This document shows, piece after piece, positions 24,133 to 33,899 of a DNA stretch of 64,000 nucleotides. The stretch's first letter is position 1, and each line of letters begins with the position of its first letter. The stretch is taken from NCBI GenBank assembly GCA_003290165.1, contig QNQO01005848.1:1-64000 (forward strand), in the 5' to 3' direction. The notes under the pieces were generated by a model. It ran no database searches. It was not told the DNA's origin and worked only from the letters and a program-made list of their open reading frames with translations. A program made the translations under genes and the position numbers. The DNA is from Berberis thunbergii. Its lineage: Eukaryota; Streptophyta; Magnoliopsida; Ranunculales; Berberidaceae.

Positions 24133-24463
24133 TGTCATGATCGTGACTATTTGGCCAGAATTGGAAGATGAATGAAAAAGCTTGAATGGAATTAAAAATG
24201 AAAAAAAAGGACTTACAGAGTCTTCTTCTTCAAGTTCCTTGAACCAGAGCCCTATTTCTTTTATTCTTCTCTACCTTTTCTTTTACTTCGTTTCCATATT
24301 TAAGCTAAGAGATATTTTCATCTCCCAATGGTTCGCTTACACGTGTAAAACTCACGTGGGTTCTTAACTAACAATTAAAGAAATTACAATTATATCTTTC
24401 CTAAAACAATTTGAATTTGGCGCCTCATTTTCTTCTCTTTTGAATGCTCTTCTGATCGTGACA
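24133..24463 (-). repeat. 3' LTR of the captured-gene retrotransposon
   Basis: Left edge TGTCATGATCGTGACTATTT, right edge TCTGATCGTGACA. Aligns along its whole length with 33568-33899. The flanking CAAGT at 24128-24132 is the target duplication. Confidence 0.85.
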
Positions 24464-24575
24464 TTGCCTACCCCTTTTCCAAATCCTTGTCCTCAAGGAT
24501 CAAACGATGGAAATCTTGAGGTGATGTATGTTCAGGGAAGGAAGTTGCAAATATTTCCCTACTGCCATGGCTGTT
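24464..24575 (-). pseudogene. remnant of the pol C-terminal tail and polypurine tract
   Basis: On the minus strand one frame reads TSPQDFHRLILEDKDLEKG then stop, just before a purine-rich tract and the 3' LTR. Ty3/gypsy pol proteins commonly end in a LEDK phrase at this place. It is short, so the call rests mainly on position. Confidence 0.55.
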
Positions 24576-25074
24576 GCATATCTATCTGAGTCCTGAAGCT
24601 GGAAGGGTCTCATTGGCATACCAAGGTTGTTGATCACCCTAGGGATGGCAGTGGGGCAGATTTTCACGGATATCTGCCCCACCCAATCTGTTTGGGGCGG
24701 TTTTGGATATGGCTGAATGAGTTTTCGGGTGGTTTCAGGTATCCAAAAAATCCGTTTCACTATTCGGGGCGGATACGGATTTGGCCATATCCGCCCCACC
24801 GATATCTGTTTATTAGGTAACATTACAACAATACCCTTCCCCTATATAAAGGGATTAAACTCTTGATCCCTCCCTCTCCCTCATTCCCTCCCTCACACCC
24901 ACTTCTCCCTCTCTGCCTATCACACACAGAGAACACGGGCCGAGGAGCGATTCGAGCGAAGGCGTCTCCCTCCCTCTCTGCCTCTCACACACAGAGATCT
25001 GAGAACACAACGAAGCCAAGGCGGAGGCCGAAGGGAAGGGTCGTCGTCGACGTCGATTCGTTGTCCGCCTCTTC

Positions 25075-25255
25075 TCTCTCACTGTCCCTTCTTCTCTCTC
25101 ACAGGCTCACAGCGAAGGCGGAGGCCGTCTGCCTCTTCTTCTCTCTCACAGCGAAGGCGAAACTCGTTTGCCTCTTCTTCTATCTCACAGCGAAGGCGAA
25201 GCTCGTCCGCCTCTTCTTCTCTAATCTCTCTCACAAGCTCATAGCGAAGGTCATC
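25075..25255. repeat. tandem repeat in the hAT interior, about 50 bp units
   Basis: Three to four units with TTCTCTCTCACAGCGAAGGC and GTYTGCCTCTTCTTCT-type halves. Confidence 0.8.
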
Positions 25256-25276
25256 GTCGCCCCTTCTCCTTCTCCT

Positions 25277-25470
25277 TCCGATCTTAGATCTAAGATCTGA
25301 TCAAATTTGATCTTAGATCAGATCCGAGTTCTGATCTGATCTATCTGATCTCATCAGCTGATCTGATCTAATCTCAGATCTCAGATTTCTTCTGATCCGA
25401 TCTCAGATCTCATTAGATCTCATAAGATCAGATCTTATAAGATCAGATCACAGAACTAAAATCAGATCCA
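25277..25470. repeat. GATC-rich block, overlapping AGATCT/TGATCA/GATCAGATC
   Basis: About 22 GATC tetramers occur in under 200 bp, many inside six-base palindromes. This looks like an expanded short motif rather than random sequence. Confidence 0.85.
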
Positions 25471-26295
25471 GAGATTTTTTTTTTTTGTATTTAAATTTTT
25501 TTTGTACGAATTCTTTGTAAATTGTAATTCAAAATATTTTGTAATTCAGAATTTTTTGTATTTTTTTTTTACGAATTCAGAGATTAATTTTTTAGTTTTT
25601 TGTTATAATTTTGTGCAGATTGGCCGGGCAAGGCGGATATCCGCCCATCCGCACGTGGTGGTTATGGATTTTGATTAAAATTGTAAAACGGATTGGCGGG
25701 GCGGATTGGGGATCCGTTATTACTGACGGACGGGGAATGTATTTGCTCAAATCCGCCCTTTTGCCATCCCTAGATCACCCCGTCAATTCTGAATATATCC
25801 AGGCCCAAATGAGCCAAGATATGAGCACCTGTGTACAAGGGAAGAAATTGTGAAACCTGTGCAGGTTCCAACTATAACATGAACTTTCTTTATGACCTTC
25901 CCATTGGAAAAGTTCAAAAGTTCATCTTAGCATCTGGATCAACTTCGCACTTTTCTCTATATGTAGGAACAAGTCCATATGCTGTGGTATTGTGGGTTCC
26001 ATAGCTCATATGTTCTGGAATATTCCCTAATCTACAAAACCTATCACAACGTCTTCCCCAGCCCTATCACATCCACCGCCTGTAGGTCATACTCCCATTG
26101 GAAGTCCAAAAAATTGGGGTGTGTGTGTTGTCAGCCTCTTTACCTTCAAATCTTTATCTACAGATTTCACACCAGGGGCTCTTCTAAGTGCTTCTGCCTG
26201 CTCAAGCGATGTGTGAAACAACAAAACCATGAATAGGATGCTTGTAACTATATAGTTTTTTTGTAGGTCCCAGTTTCAAACAATAGCCCTAAAAG

Positions 26296-26715
26296 TGTTG
26301 AAAATGAAACACTCACACAAACAACTTTTATTGAAACTCAAACAAATATTACAAGAGCACTCTCACTCAAAAAACAAGATACTACAACTCACTCTTTGCT
26401 TCTTCACTCACTTAGAAGCTCTTAATTTTTCTTGATGCCTACACTAGAATGGGGAAGGGTATTTATACTACTTAAGAACAAATCTACACCATACAAATAA
26501 ACTAATCCAAAATTATAATAACCATACACCTCATTCTTCTTCATTCTTCTCCATCCTTCTAACAATATTTTAAATGATTCACATGCATAATTACCACACC
26601 CTAGAAGATTCTAGGTAGAAGGCTTGTAGTTTTGGACCTTGATTATGGACTTGGACTCCAATTTGATTGGGTTTGGGTTTGGGCTCCCATAATGGATCAA
26701 GTTTAGGATCCAACA
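26296..26715 (-). repeat. 3' LTR of the copia element
   Basis: TGTTGAAAATG...GGATCCAACA as read on the + strand. It differs from the other LTR by four substitutions (for example GGGGAAGGG/GGGGAGGGG and TGGACTTGG/TGGACTTAG). Confidence 0.95.
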
Positions 26716-26755
26716 CCCCCCCTTAAACTTGATCTTGTGACCCCTAGTAAGTTCC

Positions 26756-32140: not shown

Positions 32141-32548
32141 TATTTGCGGTTTGTGCACCATCTGCAAATGCAAGTCCGACAGTACCAAGGCCAAAAACAG
32201 CTACTACCGAACTTGGTTCAACCTTTGTTGTGTTCCAAACTGTCCCAAGACCTGTAGGAACTCCACAACCAAGTAAGCATACATTGTCTAGAAGGGATTG
32301 AGGATCAATCTTATGTACTAGTAGTATGTGTTGACTAAATGTTGATGTTCCCATGAAATGAAAGATTGGCTTTCTGTCTACTGAGAAACGACTCTTGTGA
32401 TCAGTCATCATAACAGCAACACCAGTGGCTGCACGGACCTTGCTACAAAGATTTGTCTTTCCTGATTCACAGAACTTACATTCCTTCATTCTGCTTGGTA
32501 ACAAGGCATGACATGGTCTCCTGGTTTAACTTCAGTTACTCCTTCGTC
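32007..32548 (-). pseudogene. ADH3: captured class III alcohol dehydrogenase (GSNOR/ADH3) fragment, fused to FKBP/TPR piece
   Basis: Class III ADH oxidises S-hydroxymethylglutathione and reduces S-nitrosoglutathione. From about 32548 the minus strand reads [18 protein letters not shown]. After a one-base break it reads [19 protein letters not shown] (structural zinc cysteines), [38 protein letters not shown] and the Rossmann motif [13 protein letters not shown]. At about 32140 the match ends after FADGAQTA and the frame runs on without a stop into the FKBP/TPR piece, giving an open frame from 32504 to 32007. A few residues are missing between FSQ and KIDP. No intron is seen, although plant ADH genes have many. 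Catalytic-zinc N-terminus and most of the C-terminal half are absent. Confidence 0.88.
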
Positions 32549-32689
32549 AAGTGATTTGCAACAATTGTACCATCAACTAGCATTATTTGATATACTTGGT
32601 GGTAACTTCATAAAAATTAAGTGAGTCCTTGAAATCCCACGTGTAGACAAAAATCCAAAATTTCTCTTGCAGACATGAAATACCCTGTG

Positions 32690-33290
32690 TAGATAAATCA
32701 CTGCGGCTCTTGACATGCACAACTTTCCGCACGAACTCCACAAAAATTTTCATTCCATGACTCCTATTAGCAAGGAAGAAATCAATACCTTTATCGAACT
32801 GCTTAATTTTTATGGCACGAATAGCTGCATCATGCTTAAAAATAAGCTGCTCCAAGTAAAAGAAACTCCTCCTGTGAGAAACATGTTGCTTAAGCTGAAC
32901 AACAGCTTTCAGCAATCCACTGGTCAGGATTTGATTGAATCCAGGAATAGTAATCGCACATCTGATCATGTACCACGTCCTCAATCATGTATGTTTGCTT
33001 GAGAACTGCCCCATTAAGAATCTCTTTCTGCATTGTATTCCCCACCCTGATTCTCTTGAAATGAGGTACAATCGCAACAAATTCAGTAATATCAGCTTCA
33101 GATCTCAAACACTTAACACACATTTTTTCAGCATTTGGTGCCATTGGCATTCCACATTCGCAACACAGAACACTACCAATAGTTTGAGGTATCCTAAGCA
33201 AACCTGCCTGCTCTTCCATCGTTAGATATATAGGCCAGAACTGTCGAATAACATGGGAAAGATAATTAATGGTTGGACCGAATGTTCCAG
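32690..33290 (-). pseudogene. NMD3: captured NMD3 fragment with its start codon
   Basis: NMD3 is the adaptor that exports 60S ribosomal subunits from the nucleus. The minus-strand frame from Met at 33217-33219 reads MEEQAGLLRIPQTIGSVLCC, then a zinc-ribbon CxxC pair (CCECG..CVKCLRSEADITE). A deletion of several dozen family residues follows, then HFKRIRV, QKEILNGAVLKQTYMIEDVV and NPDQW, then (other frame, 32697-32910) VQLKQHVSHRRSFFYLEQLI, FKHDAAIRAIKIKQFDKGID and VVHVKSRSD. About 70 bases upstream of the Met probably are NMD3 5' UTR. The following residues to about 32583 (DFKDSLNFYEVTTKYIK) I cannot assign. Confidence 0.88.
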
Positions 33291-33309
33291 TGATGTGAAT
33301 ACTCGGAGA

Positions 33310-33525
33310 CTTGTTTGAATCCACAGATCCAACGGTTCTATGGTGATTTTGCAGTAATTGAACAAGTTGTTCAATTCGTGCATCTAATCTCTTATCTCTG
33401 GCTTCACTTGCCTCTGCTAGCATCTTGAATTCGGTCTTCAAAAATTTGATATGTTCATTTATCTCTAATTGGTTCATTTTTGTCTCCTCCATGAAAGCTT
33501 CCATCTCCTCAGATGTGATTTTCAT
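33310..33525 (-). pseudogene. gag N-terminus of the captured-gene retrotransposon
   Basis: Starts at Met 33523-33525 about 30 bases after the primer site and reads a charged, coiled-coil-like stretch (EEMEAFMEETKMNQLEINEH, RLDARIEQLVQLLQNHH), typical of the start of Ty3/gypsy gag proteins. It then merges into the NMD3 piece without a stop. Confidence 0.7.
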
Positions 33526-33553
33526 GGTTGCACAGGTTGGTGGATCGTAACGT

Positions 33554-33565
33554 GCTTTGATACCA
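33554..33565 (-). other. primer-binding site of the captured-gene retrotransposon
   Basis: TGGTATCAAAGC on the minus strand, two bases from the 5' LTR at 33568. Confidence 0.85.
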
Positions 33566-33567
33566 AT

Positions 33568-33899
33568 TGTCACGATCATGACTATTTGGCAAACAATTGA
33601 AGATGAATGAGAAAGCTTGAATGGAATTAAAAATGAAAAAAATCACTTACAAAGTCTTTTTTTTCCAGGTTCCTTGAACCAAAGCCCTATTTCTTCTATT
33701 CTTCTCCACCTTCTCTTCTACTTCTCTTCCCTGTTTAAGCTAACAAATATTTTCATCTCCCAGTGGTGGGTGGCTTACACGTGTAAAATTTAACTAATAA
33801 TTAAAGAATTTACAATTATATCTTTCCTAAAACAATTTAAAACTATTTGAATTTGGCACCTCCTTTTCTTCTCTTTTGAATGTTCTTCTGATCCTGGCA
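33568..33899 (-). repeat. 5' LTR of the captured-gene retrotransposon
   Basis: Left edge TGTCACGATCATGACTATTT, right edge TCTGATCCTGGCA. CAAGC at 33900-33904 matches CAAGT at the other end in four of five bases. Confidence 0.85.

What the first reader, a model, noticed from the sequence alone, without database searches (positions are those of the whole stretch)
24133..33899. An LTR retrotransposon carrying pieces of at least four unrelated cellular genes in sense order
Between matching LTRs with a primer site and near-perfect target duplication, the body reads gag start, NMD3 (with its own start codon and leader), class III ADH, FKBP/TPR protein, SBT2 subtilase, pol tail. All are on the element's sense strand and intron-free where the parent genes have introns. 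Maize Bs1 is the known precedent for a retroelement with several transduced genes. Four donors in one 3.3-kb element with almost no pol left is unusual and suggests repeated RNA template switching.
Basis: partly seen in the sequence, partly recalled or inferred. Interest (0 to 1): 0.93.

Follow-up and report, generated by a model that had tools for sequence, protein, structure and literature searches.

The report
Retrotransposon patchwork of cellular messages
A plant jumping element carries stitched-together pieces of five unrelated genes, without the introns, and relatives of it in the same genome carry other gene pieces; they were likely picked up when the copying enzyme hopped from the element's RNA to cellular messages and back.

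Summary
The element is real and stranger than reported. Between diverged LTRs (K2P 0.16) lie, on the sense strand, pieces of five host genes: NMD3, an FKBP62-type FKBP/TPR gene, class III ADH, peroxisomal MFP2 and an SBT2 subtilase. Two pieces are nested: ADH3 sits inside FKBP, SBT2 inside MFP2. Parent genes of all five were found in the host genome. Eight of eight parental introns that could be placed inside the pieces are missing. At all five joins where both parents could be read, the donors share 5-10 nt at the crossover (0.71% of random breakpoints or fewer reach that). A second contig carries the same insertion. A younger copy (C7480) shares both ADH3/FKBP joins but carries ARC6, not SBT2. 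Loci of other members show ACOX, ClpB-type, molybdenum-oxidoreductase, Sec23/24 and other fragments. Best explanation: repeated double template switching, element RNA to cellular mRNA and back. Packaging and polymerase are inferred. Precedents seen: Bs1 and a soybean TRIM with three genes each; a maize survey found no element with two. Verdict: supported, upgraded from one odd element to a serially patched family.

The parts
33568..33899 (-). 5' LTR (332 bp)
   Evidence: 40 of 93 LTR candidates in the host genome were scored
24133..24463 (-). 3' LTR (331 bp)
24128..24132 (.). target duplication CAAGT; partner CAAGC at 33900-33904 (4 of 5 nt)
33554..33565 (-). primer-binding-site-like TGGTATCAAAGC (initiator tRNA-Met type, recalled)
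33082..33250 (-). NMD3 piece 1: about 30 nt of 5' UTR, ATG at 33219, residues 1-46; begins about 2 nt after a 3' splice site of the parent's 5' UTR intron
32697..33086 (-). NMD3 piece 2 (to residue 225); internal jump at 5 nt CTGAA (33086-33082)
32603..32663 (-). possible RPB2-like remnant shared with other members (weak)
   Evidence: C50 68 vs shuffle max 43, C11135 52 vs 38, C6049 51 vs 45, C1527 45 vs 42, C7480 39 vs 48 (not above)
32537..32598 (-). FKBP piece a (residues about 182-201)
32155..32546 (-). ADH3 (class III ADH/GSNOR) piece, residues about 79-214, nested in FKBP; crossovers GGAAGGAGTA (32546-32537) and AGAAGGTGC (32163-32155), each with one base changed in the element
32080..32163 (-). 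FKBP piece b (residues about 289-316)
31798..32085 (-). FKBP piece c, TPR part (residues about 402-503); internal jump at TGAGAA (32085-32080)
31711..31780 (-). MFP2 piece a (enoyl-CoA hydratase part)
   Evidence: (87% to a C6049 segment), which matches ECH_1 below Pfam's cut-off and AtMFP2 residues 43-113 at E 3e-7
31605..31712 (-). SBT2 piece, first part (to the Copia insertion)
25897..26295 (-). SBT2 piece, second part (residues about 76-207), nested in MFP2; crossover TGGGAAG (25903-25897)
25775..25903 (-). MFP2 piece b, first part
24524..24637 (-).
24464..24523 (-). native 3' end with purine tract
26296..31604 (-). nested Copia element (later insertion in the SBT2 piece), TSD AAAAG
24640..25772 (.). 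nested hAT-like MITE, 8-bp TSD GATCACCC

Best explanation
This is an LTR retrotransposon without recognisable pol whose body carries pieces of five host messages, spliced wherever the parent's introns could be placed, likely acquired by a reverse transcriptase that repeatedly jumped from the element's RNA to a co-packaged cellular mRNA and back at short shared sequences. Two jumps per capture would leave the LTRs, primer site and purine tract at the ends untouched and put each new piece inside older cargo: ADH3 inside FKBP, SBT2 inside MFP2. Shown: spliced sense-strand origin for four of the five donors, host parent genes on separate contigs, 5-10 nt donor identity at the five readable crossovers, nested order, and a second genomic copy with the same FKBP/ADH3 joins but other cargo elsewhere. 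Inferred: packaging of the mRNAs, the enzyme that did the copying (none was found in the element), and the order of events.
For: Parents: NMD3 (C1230/C1139/C2458, 88-90%), ADH3 (C1318/C10192/C2851/C1317, 86-87%; next exon of C1318 93%), FKBP (C955/C3117, 80-92%), SBT2 (C2596/C1677/C1486/C736, 83-94%), MFP2 (C9645/C1033/C8048/C477, 79-87%). Introns absent: ADH3 CTACAG|GTATG and CTAGCA|GTAAG; FKBP three; SBT2 two; MFP2 one = 8 of 8 placed. Crossovers: CTGAA 5 nt (0.71% of 200,000 random breakpoints reach it), GGAAGGAGTA 10 (0.008%), AGAAGGTGC 9 (0.007%), TGAGAA 6 (0.23%), TGGGAAG 7 (0.07%). Sandwiches: FKBP-ADH3-FKBP, MFP2-SBT2-MFP2, MFP2-ARC6-MFP2 in C7480 (its first MFP2 part by translation only). 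Both joins, with the derived T in the second crossover, recur in C7480, whose LTRs are younger (K2P 0.042 on 223 nt vs 0.162). Different cargo at other members' loci.
Against: Only 5 of about 10 joins could be read in both parents; a sixth (MFP2|SBT2) has only a relative as proxy. No RT, integrase or packaging signal was found in the element. NMD3's CDS is intronless in the host, so its piece says nothing about splicing. The parents are today's host genes, assumed to be the donors. With provisional edges GCAAAT lay near both ends of ADH3 (6 nt, 9% of random pairs); at the crossovers themselves only 3 nt are shared. FKBP|MFP2 joins differ between the window and C7480/C6049, so the history is more complex than one capture per donor. 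Cargo between two LTRs is established for only four elements.
Confidence: 0.86

Rival explanations
1. The chimera formed at DNA level: separate retrocopies (processed pseudogenes made by LINE-type machinery) inserted one inside another and were later trapped between LTRs.
For: The pieces are spliced; with provisional edges a 6-nt repeat lay near both ends of ADH3.
Against: No A run longer than 4 within 25 nt of 12 joins, and edge repeats of only 3-5 nt; all pieces lie on the element's sense strand; donors share 5-10 nt at five crossovers; pieces replace, not interrupt, older cargo (FKBP residues about 202-288 are missing where ADH3 sits).
Confidence: 0.06
2. Read-through transduction: the element was transcribed together with neighbouring genes, then spliced and packaged.
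For: Known for some retroelements (review PMC13317346, passages).
Against: Parents of the five donors were found on different contigs; pieces are internal gene fragments flanked by older cargo; the readable crossovers fall inside exons at donor identities, though the NMD3 start lies about 2 nt from a splice site.
Confidence: 0.03
3. Recombination between already chimeric element copies (DNA or cDNA) shuffled cargo; template switching onto mRNA happened only rarely, long ago.
For: FKBP, MFP2 and an RPB2-like piece recur in several members; C7480 and C106 share about 1.45 kb (ARC6, MFP2 tail and part of the LTR) at 91%.
Against: In one search (all 17 candidates scored, 21 matches) the SBT2 part matched only the element, its second contig and four loci that have the parental intron; it joins MFP2 at a stretch shared by the two host parents. 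The shorter first SBT2 part was searched only, where 40 of 252 candidates were scored.
Confidence: 0.15

Closest known systems
Maize Bs1
   Same: LTR element with exon-derived fragments of several cellular genes (three: H+-ATPase, xylan endohydrolase, beta-1,3-glucanase; review PMC13317346, passages)
   Different: Here five donors in one element, nested cargo, crossovers placed on host parents, and a family whose members carry different sets. The Bs1 papers themselves were not read (not held).
Soybean TRIM GmaRetroS15
   Same: LTR element with intron-less fragments of three genes (PMC4717578, section 13 read; it says two TRIMs carry exons of more than two genes)
   Different: TRIMs with gene fragments there are 1,172-1,449 bp; this is about 3.3 kb without its nested insertions, with five donors and double-switch nesting.
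Maize B73 LTR elements with gene fragments
   Same: 425 intact LTR elements with fragments (PMC2774510, passages)
   Different: That survey found, under its conditions, no element with fragments of more than one standard nuclear gene.
Pack-MULEs (and Helitrons)
   Same: Collect fragments of several genes in one element (recalled)
   Different: Pack-MULEs hold exons and introns (PMC4717578; Helitrons recalled); here 8 of 8 placed introns are absent and the ends are LTRs.
LINE-made chimeric retrogenes of Magnaporthe (PMC2104539; listing and start of abstract only)
   Same: Template jumps joining several RNAs
   Different: LINE machinery; here LTR ends flank everything.

Membership tests
LTR retrotransposon | two LTRs, TG..CA ends | tested here: met
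LTR retrotransposon | target-site duplication (5 bp) | tested here: met
   CAAGT/CAAGC, 4 of 5 nt
LTR retrotransposon | primer site and purine tract | tested here: met
   TGGTATCAAAGC; GGAAAAGGGG; match to tRNA-iMet recalled
Autonomous LTR retrotransposon | gag and pol genes | tested here: not met
   No Pfam gag/pol in the segments of the element's own sequence that were scanned; RT and integrase only in the nested Copia
Ty3/gypsy | RT of that type in the family | tested here: inconclusive
   C3643 locus has a gypsy-like RT fragment by recall only; no Pfam match
Bs1-type gene-transducing LTR element | cellular gene pieces without introns | tested here: met
   8 of 8 placed introns absent
Bs1-type gene-transducing LTR element | pieces in element sense | tested here: met
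   NMD3, FKBP, ADH3, SBT2 on minus strand; MFP2 likewise
TRIM | very short element (gene-bearing TRIMs 1,172-1,449 bp) | tested here: not met
   about 3.3 kb without nested insertions
Pack-MULE / Helitron | introns retained, no LTRs | tested here: not met
LINE processed pseudogene | poly(A) tail and own target duplication per piece | tested here: not met
   (12 joins, 5 pairs of edges)

The most novel reading that the evidence does not exclude
A family of LTR retrotransposons acts as a running recorder of the cell's messages: its ends stay fixed while the middle is overwritten again and again by double template switches onto cellular mRNAs, and the resulting chimeras transpose and are patched anew. 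At the loci sampled here at least 14 cellular gene families appear, so most of the body of these elements would be host message, not transposon.
Probability: 0.72. Interest if true: 0.92.

Novelty: new variant of a known kind. Interest (0 to 1): 0.85.

Why it matters
Capture of cellular genes by retroelements is known from isolated cases, and how it happens has been argued mostly by analogy. Here parents, crossovers, nested order and related copies lie in one genome, so the steps can be read: spliced template, jump at 5-10 nt identity, jump back. It gives a natural series for measuring where a reverse transcriptase switches, which mRNAs it meets, and how often chimeras move again. It would also be a steady source of sense, exon-only multi-gene chimeras, raw material for new genes and for small RNAs against housekeeping genes, and a hazard for gene annotation.

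Tried and rejected
Rejected: pol tail (it is MFP2). LINE pseudogenes, read-through transduction, Pack-MULE/Helitron capture: see rivals and membership. A target duplication around ADH3: with provisional edges GCAAAT was shared (9.2% of random pairs; NMD3 6 nt, 10.3%; FKBP 4 nt, 79%; SBT2 4 nt, 79%); with the edges set by the parents the shared runs are 3 (ADH3), 4 (NMD3), 5 (SBT2), 4 (FKBP) and 4 nt (MFP2), reached by 3994, 3403, 1554, 3421 and 3406 of 4000 random pairs. My first protein-level junction test was weak (J_a 0.41, J_c 0.016, J_d 0.0013, J_e 0.12; partly mis-registered, its J_a did not find the motif); the DNA-level test on host parents replaces it. My first reading of 31780-31711 as SBT2 was wrong: it is MFP2.

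Led nowhere: Pfam and PDB with short unassigned peptides; SBT2 in PDB (no hit at 0.001); Pfam for ten further segments (8 of 10 without a match). C40 (L015) was fetched and shows only LTR matches. The estimate that about 8.9 introns would be expected in the pieces (from published intron numbers, passages) is superseded by the direct count.
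Full report
WHAT WAS CHECKED. The window lies on contig C5833 of a 2.24-Gb plant assembly. The claimed element runs 24133-33899, sense strand minus. LTRs are 332 and 331 bp, 85.6% identical over 319 aligned sites, K2P 0.162. Flanks CAAGT/CAAGC, primer-like site and purine tract are as described. Two later insertions interrupt it: a Copia element with LTRs 99% identical and TSD AAAAG, and a hAT-like MITE with TSD GATCACCC. Contig C94 carries the same element at 98.9-100%, read here as the other haplotype.

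DONORS. The pieces were first tested against proteins. Plant NMD3, SBT2 and FKBP proteins were fetched, the best 120 of each search. By tblastn at E 1e-3, 120 of 120 NMD3, 119 of 120 SBT2 and 120 of 120 FKBP proteins hit the element and none hits the rest of the window. Frameshift-aware profile alignment gave NMD3 812 (max of 20 shuffles 52), FKBP 449 (50), ADH3 548 (46; a single recalled sequence, not a profile), SBT2 178 and 656 (64 and 48); no other match, sense or antisense, exceeded its shuffles. An ungapped scan of all six frames of the 64 kb put every hit above 57 inside the element, on its sense strand. It also showed an FKBP piece (YQIMLVDGTIVA, 81 against 56 outside) upstream of ADH3: ADH3 is nested in FKBP. 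PDB searches confirm NMD3 and plant class III ADH; TPR hits fit FKBP; SBT2 has no PDB hit at 0.001 and rests.

FIFTH DONOR. The 'pol tail' matched nothing convincing in Pfam or PDB as short peptides. Relatives solved it: the tail of element C7480 is 90% identical to it over 176 nt and matches 3HCDH (E 4e-4, just below Pfam's cut-off) and Arabidopsis MFP2 residues 513-549 (E 2.5e-4). The stretch 31780-31711 is 87% identical to part of a C6049 segment that reads FKBP_C (above cut-off) and ECH_1 (below) in one frame and hits MFP2 residues 43-113 at E 3e-7. So SBT2 is nested in MFP2. Host MFP2 loci match 25903-25775 and 24637-24524 exon by exon. A stretch between NMD3 and FKBP (about 32663-32603) resembles an RPB2-like piece of C50 (68 against shuffle max 43), C11135 (52/38), C6049 (51/45) and C1527 (45/42), but not C7480 (39/48); it is left as possible. 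The RPB2 label itself is below Pfam's cut-off.

HOST PARENTS AND SPLICING. ADH3: the host exon ends CTACAG|GTATGTC where the element runs on CTACAGGTCTTGGG, the start of the next exon (TTTTTAG|GTCTTGGG); that exon ends CTAGCA|GTAAG, and the third begins AATAG|GTTGCAGAAGG. FKBP: exons at C955 206156-206249, 206334-206484 and 207205-207277 are contiguous in the element, as is the join over the upstream intron after GTTACTG. SBT2: introns at L062 1123/1259 and 1406/1501 are absent. MFP2: the intron after 1675 of L066 is absent. That is 8 of 8 placed. NMD3's coding exon is intronless in the host, but the captured part begins about 2 nt after the 3' splice site of a 5' UTR intron. The five sets of parents lie on different contigs.

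JUNCTIONS. The element has about ten joins. For five, both donors' host sequences were in hand: NMD3 internal (CTGAA, 5 nt), FKBP|ADH3 (GGAAGGAGTA, 10), ADH3|FKBP (AGAAGGTGC, 9), FKBP internal (TGAGAA, 6), SBT2|MFP2 (TGGGAAG, 7). Against 200,000 random breakpoint pairs in the same fetched stretches (introns included) these are reached in 0.71, 0.008, 0.007, 0.23 and 0.07%. MFP2|SBT2 looks alike with C6049 as proxy for MFP2 but is not counted. One base of the 10-nt and one of the 9-nt stretch differ in the element, as expected of an old copy. No A run longer than 4 lies within 25 nt of 12 joins, and edge repeats are 3-5 nt.

A SECOND COPY. C7480 (paired contig C348) has LTRs 96% identical on 223 aligned nt (K2P 0.042), the same tail, and FKBP-ADH3-FKBP with both joins in place, including the derived T in the second crossover. 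It has no NMD3 or SBT2 hit. Between its two MFP2 parts sits ARC6 (PF23468, 164.5 bits, cut-off 24). C106 shares about 1.45 kb of ARC6, MFP2 tail and part of the LTR with it at 91%. The chimera therefore moved after the ADH3 capture, and captures differ between lines.

THE FAMILY. Besides the window, six relatives were read over 9-14 kb (C7480, C106, C11135, C50, C6049, C1527) and nine loci within 1.5 kb of the leader (C11212, C5776, C278, C2321 twice, C8241, C3643 twice, C6934). Of 50 open segments given to Pfam, 22 had a match above Pfam's cut-off, 7 only below it and 21 none. Families above cut-off besides the window's five donors: ARC6; ClpB-type AAA_lid_9 and AAA_2; Methyltransf_29; ACOX_C_alpha1; PPR; Oxidored_molyb with Mo-co_dimer (sulfite oxidase-like, name recalled); Ribosomal_S2; Sec23/24 trunk and beta-sandwich; WD40. 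That makes at least 14 gene families. G-beta, RPB2 and adaptin matches are below cut-off. Cargo between two recognised LTRs holds for four elements (window, C7480, C50, C6049), which together give eight donors (the five, ARC6, ACOX, ClpB-type); at the other loci one LTR or only the leader was seen, so some of their fragments could lie outside the element. The leader with NMD3 also occurs at C11212, C10845, C8088, C485, C5029 and C1218; C11212 keeps NMD3 residues that the window lacks, so whether NMD3 was captured once is open.

HOW IT WORKS. Where it could be read, each capture is flanked on both sides by element or older cargo, replaces part of it, lies in sense, is spliced, and joins at short identities. 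A reverse transcriptase that leaves the element RNA for a cellular mRNA and returns gives this, and such products keep the ends needed to move again. Packaging of mRNAs, the enzyme and the order are inferred. I found no polymerase coded in the element.

AGAINST. Half of the joins are unread; FKBP|MFP2 joins differ between copies; recombination among copies may explain part of the sharing; no RNA data were available. Frameshifts and stops show that the cargo is decayed, apart from a 229-codon leader-NMD3 frame.

LITERATURE. Seen as passages or one section: Bs1 three genes (PMC13317346); GmaRetroS15 three genes, two TRIMs with exons of more than two genes (PMC4717578 section 13); 425 maize elements, none with two genes under the conditions used (PMC2774510); rice and sorghum survey (PMC3726574); extra ORFs in plant LTR elements (PMC7264820). 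In the listings of searches (open-access papers only) I saw no report of five donors in one LTR element or of a serially patched family; most of those papers were not opened.

Noticed in passing
window 32890-33579 (-): Leader and NMD3 share one open frame of 229 codons, while ADH3, FKBP and SBT2 parts hold frameshifts or stops; selection not tested.
   Followed up: partly
window 26296-31604 (-): Nested Copia element, LTRs 99% identical (K2P 0.0096), with gag (381 aa) and pol (1000 aa) frames.
   Followed up: partly
window 37494-40703 (+): Second Copia-type pol, split into two open frames.
   Followed up: no
window 2860-3528 (+): Sugar-transporter coding stretch (PF00083, 151 bits).
   Followed up: no
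window 24020-24132 and 33905-34010: By eye, sequences on the two sides of the element resemble each other and an upstream unit, as if it had inserted into a local tandem repeat.
   Followed up: no
L018 5194-5637 (C6049): One open frame reads FKBP then MFP2: a join also seen in C7480 by translation but placed differently in the window.
   Followed up: partly
C11212, C10845, C8088, C485, C5029, C1218: Leader near NMD3 at 78-84% identity: NMD3 may have been captured in an older line or more than once.
   Followed up: partly
L043/L072 (C3643): Cargo is followed by a gypsy-like reverse transcriptase/RNase H fragment (by recall; no Pfam match), a hint to the parent lineage.
   Followed up: partly
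L013 5772-6011 (C11135): A methyltransferase (PF03141) fragment runs straight into a frame that looks ClpB-like (the latter half by recall).
   Followed up: no
L014/L009 (C106, C7480): About 1.45 kb of ARC6/MFP2 cargo, tail and LTR shared at 91%: a capture spread by transposition.
   Followed up: partly
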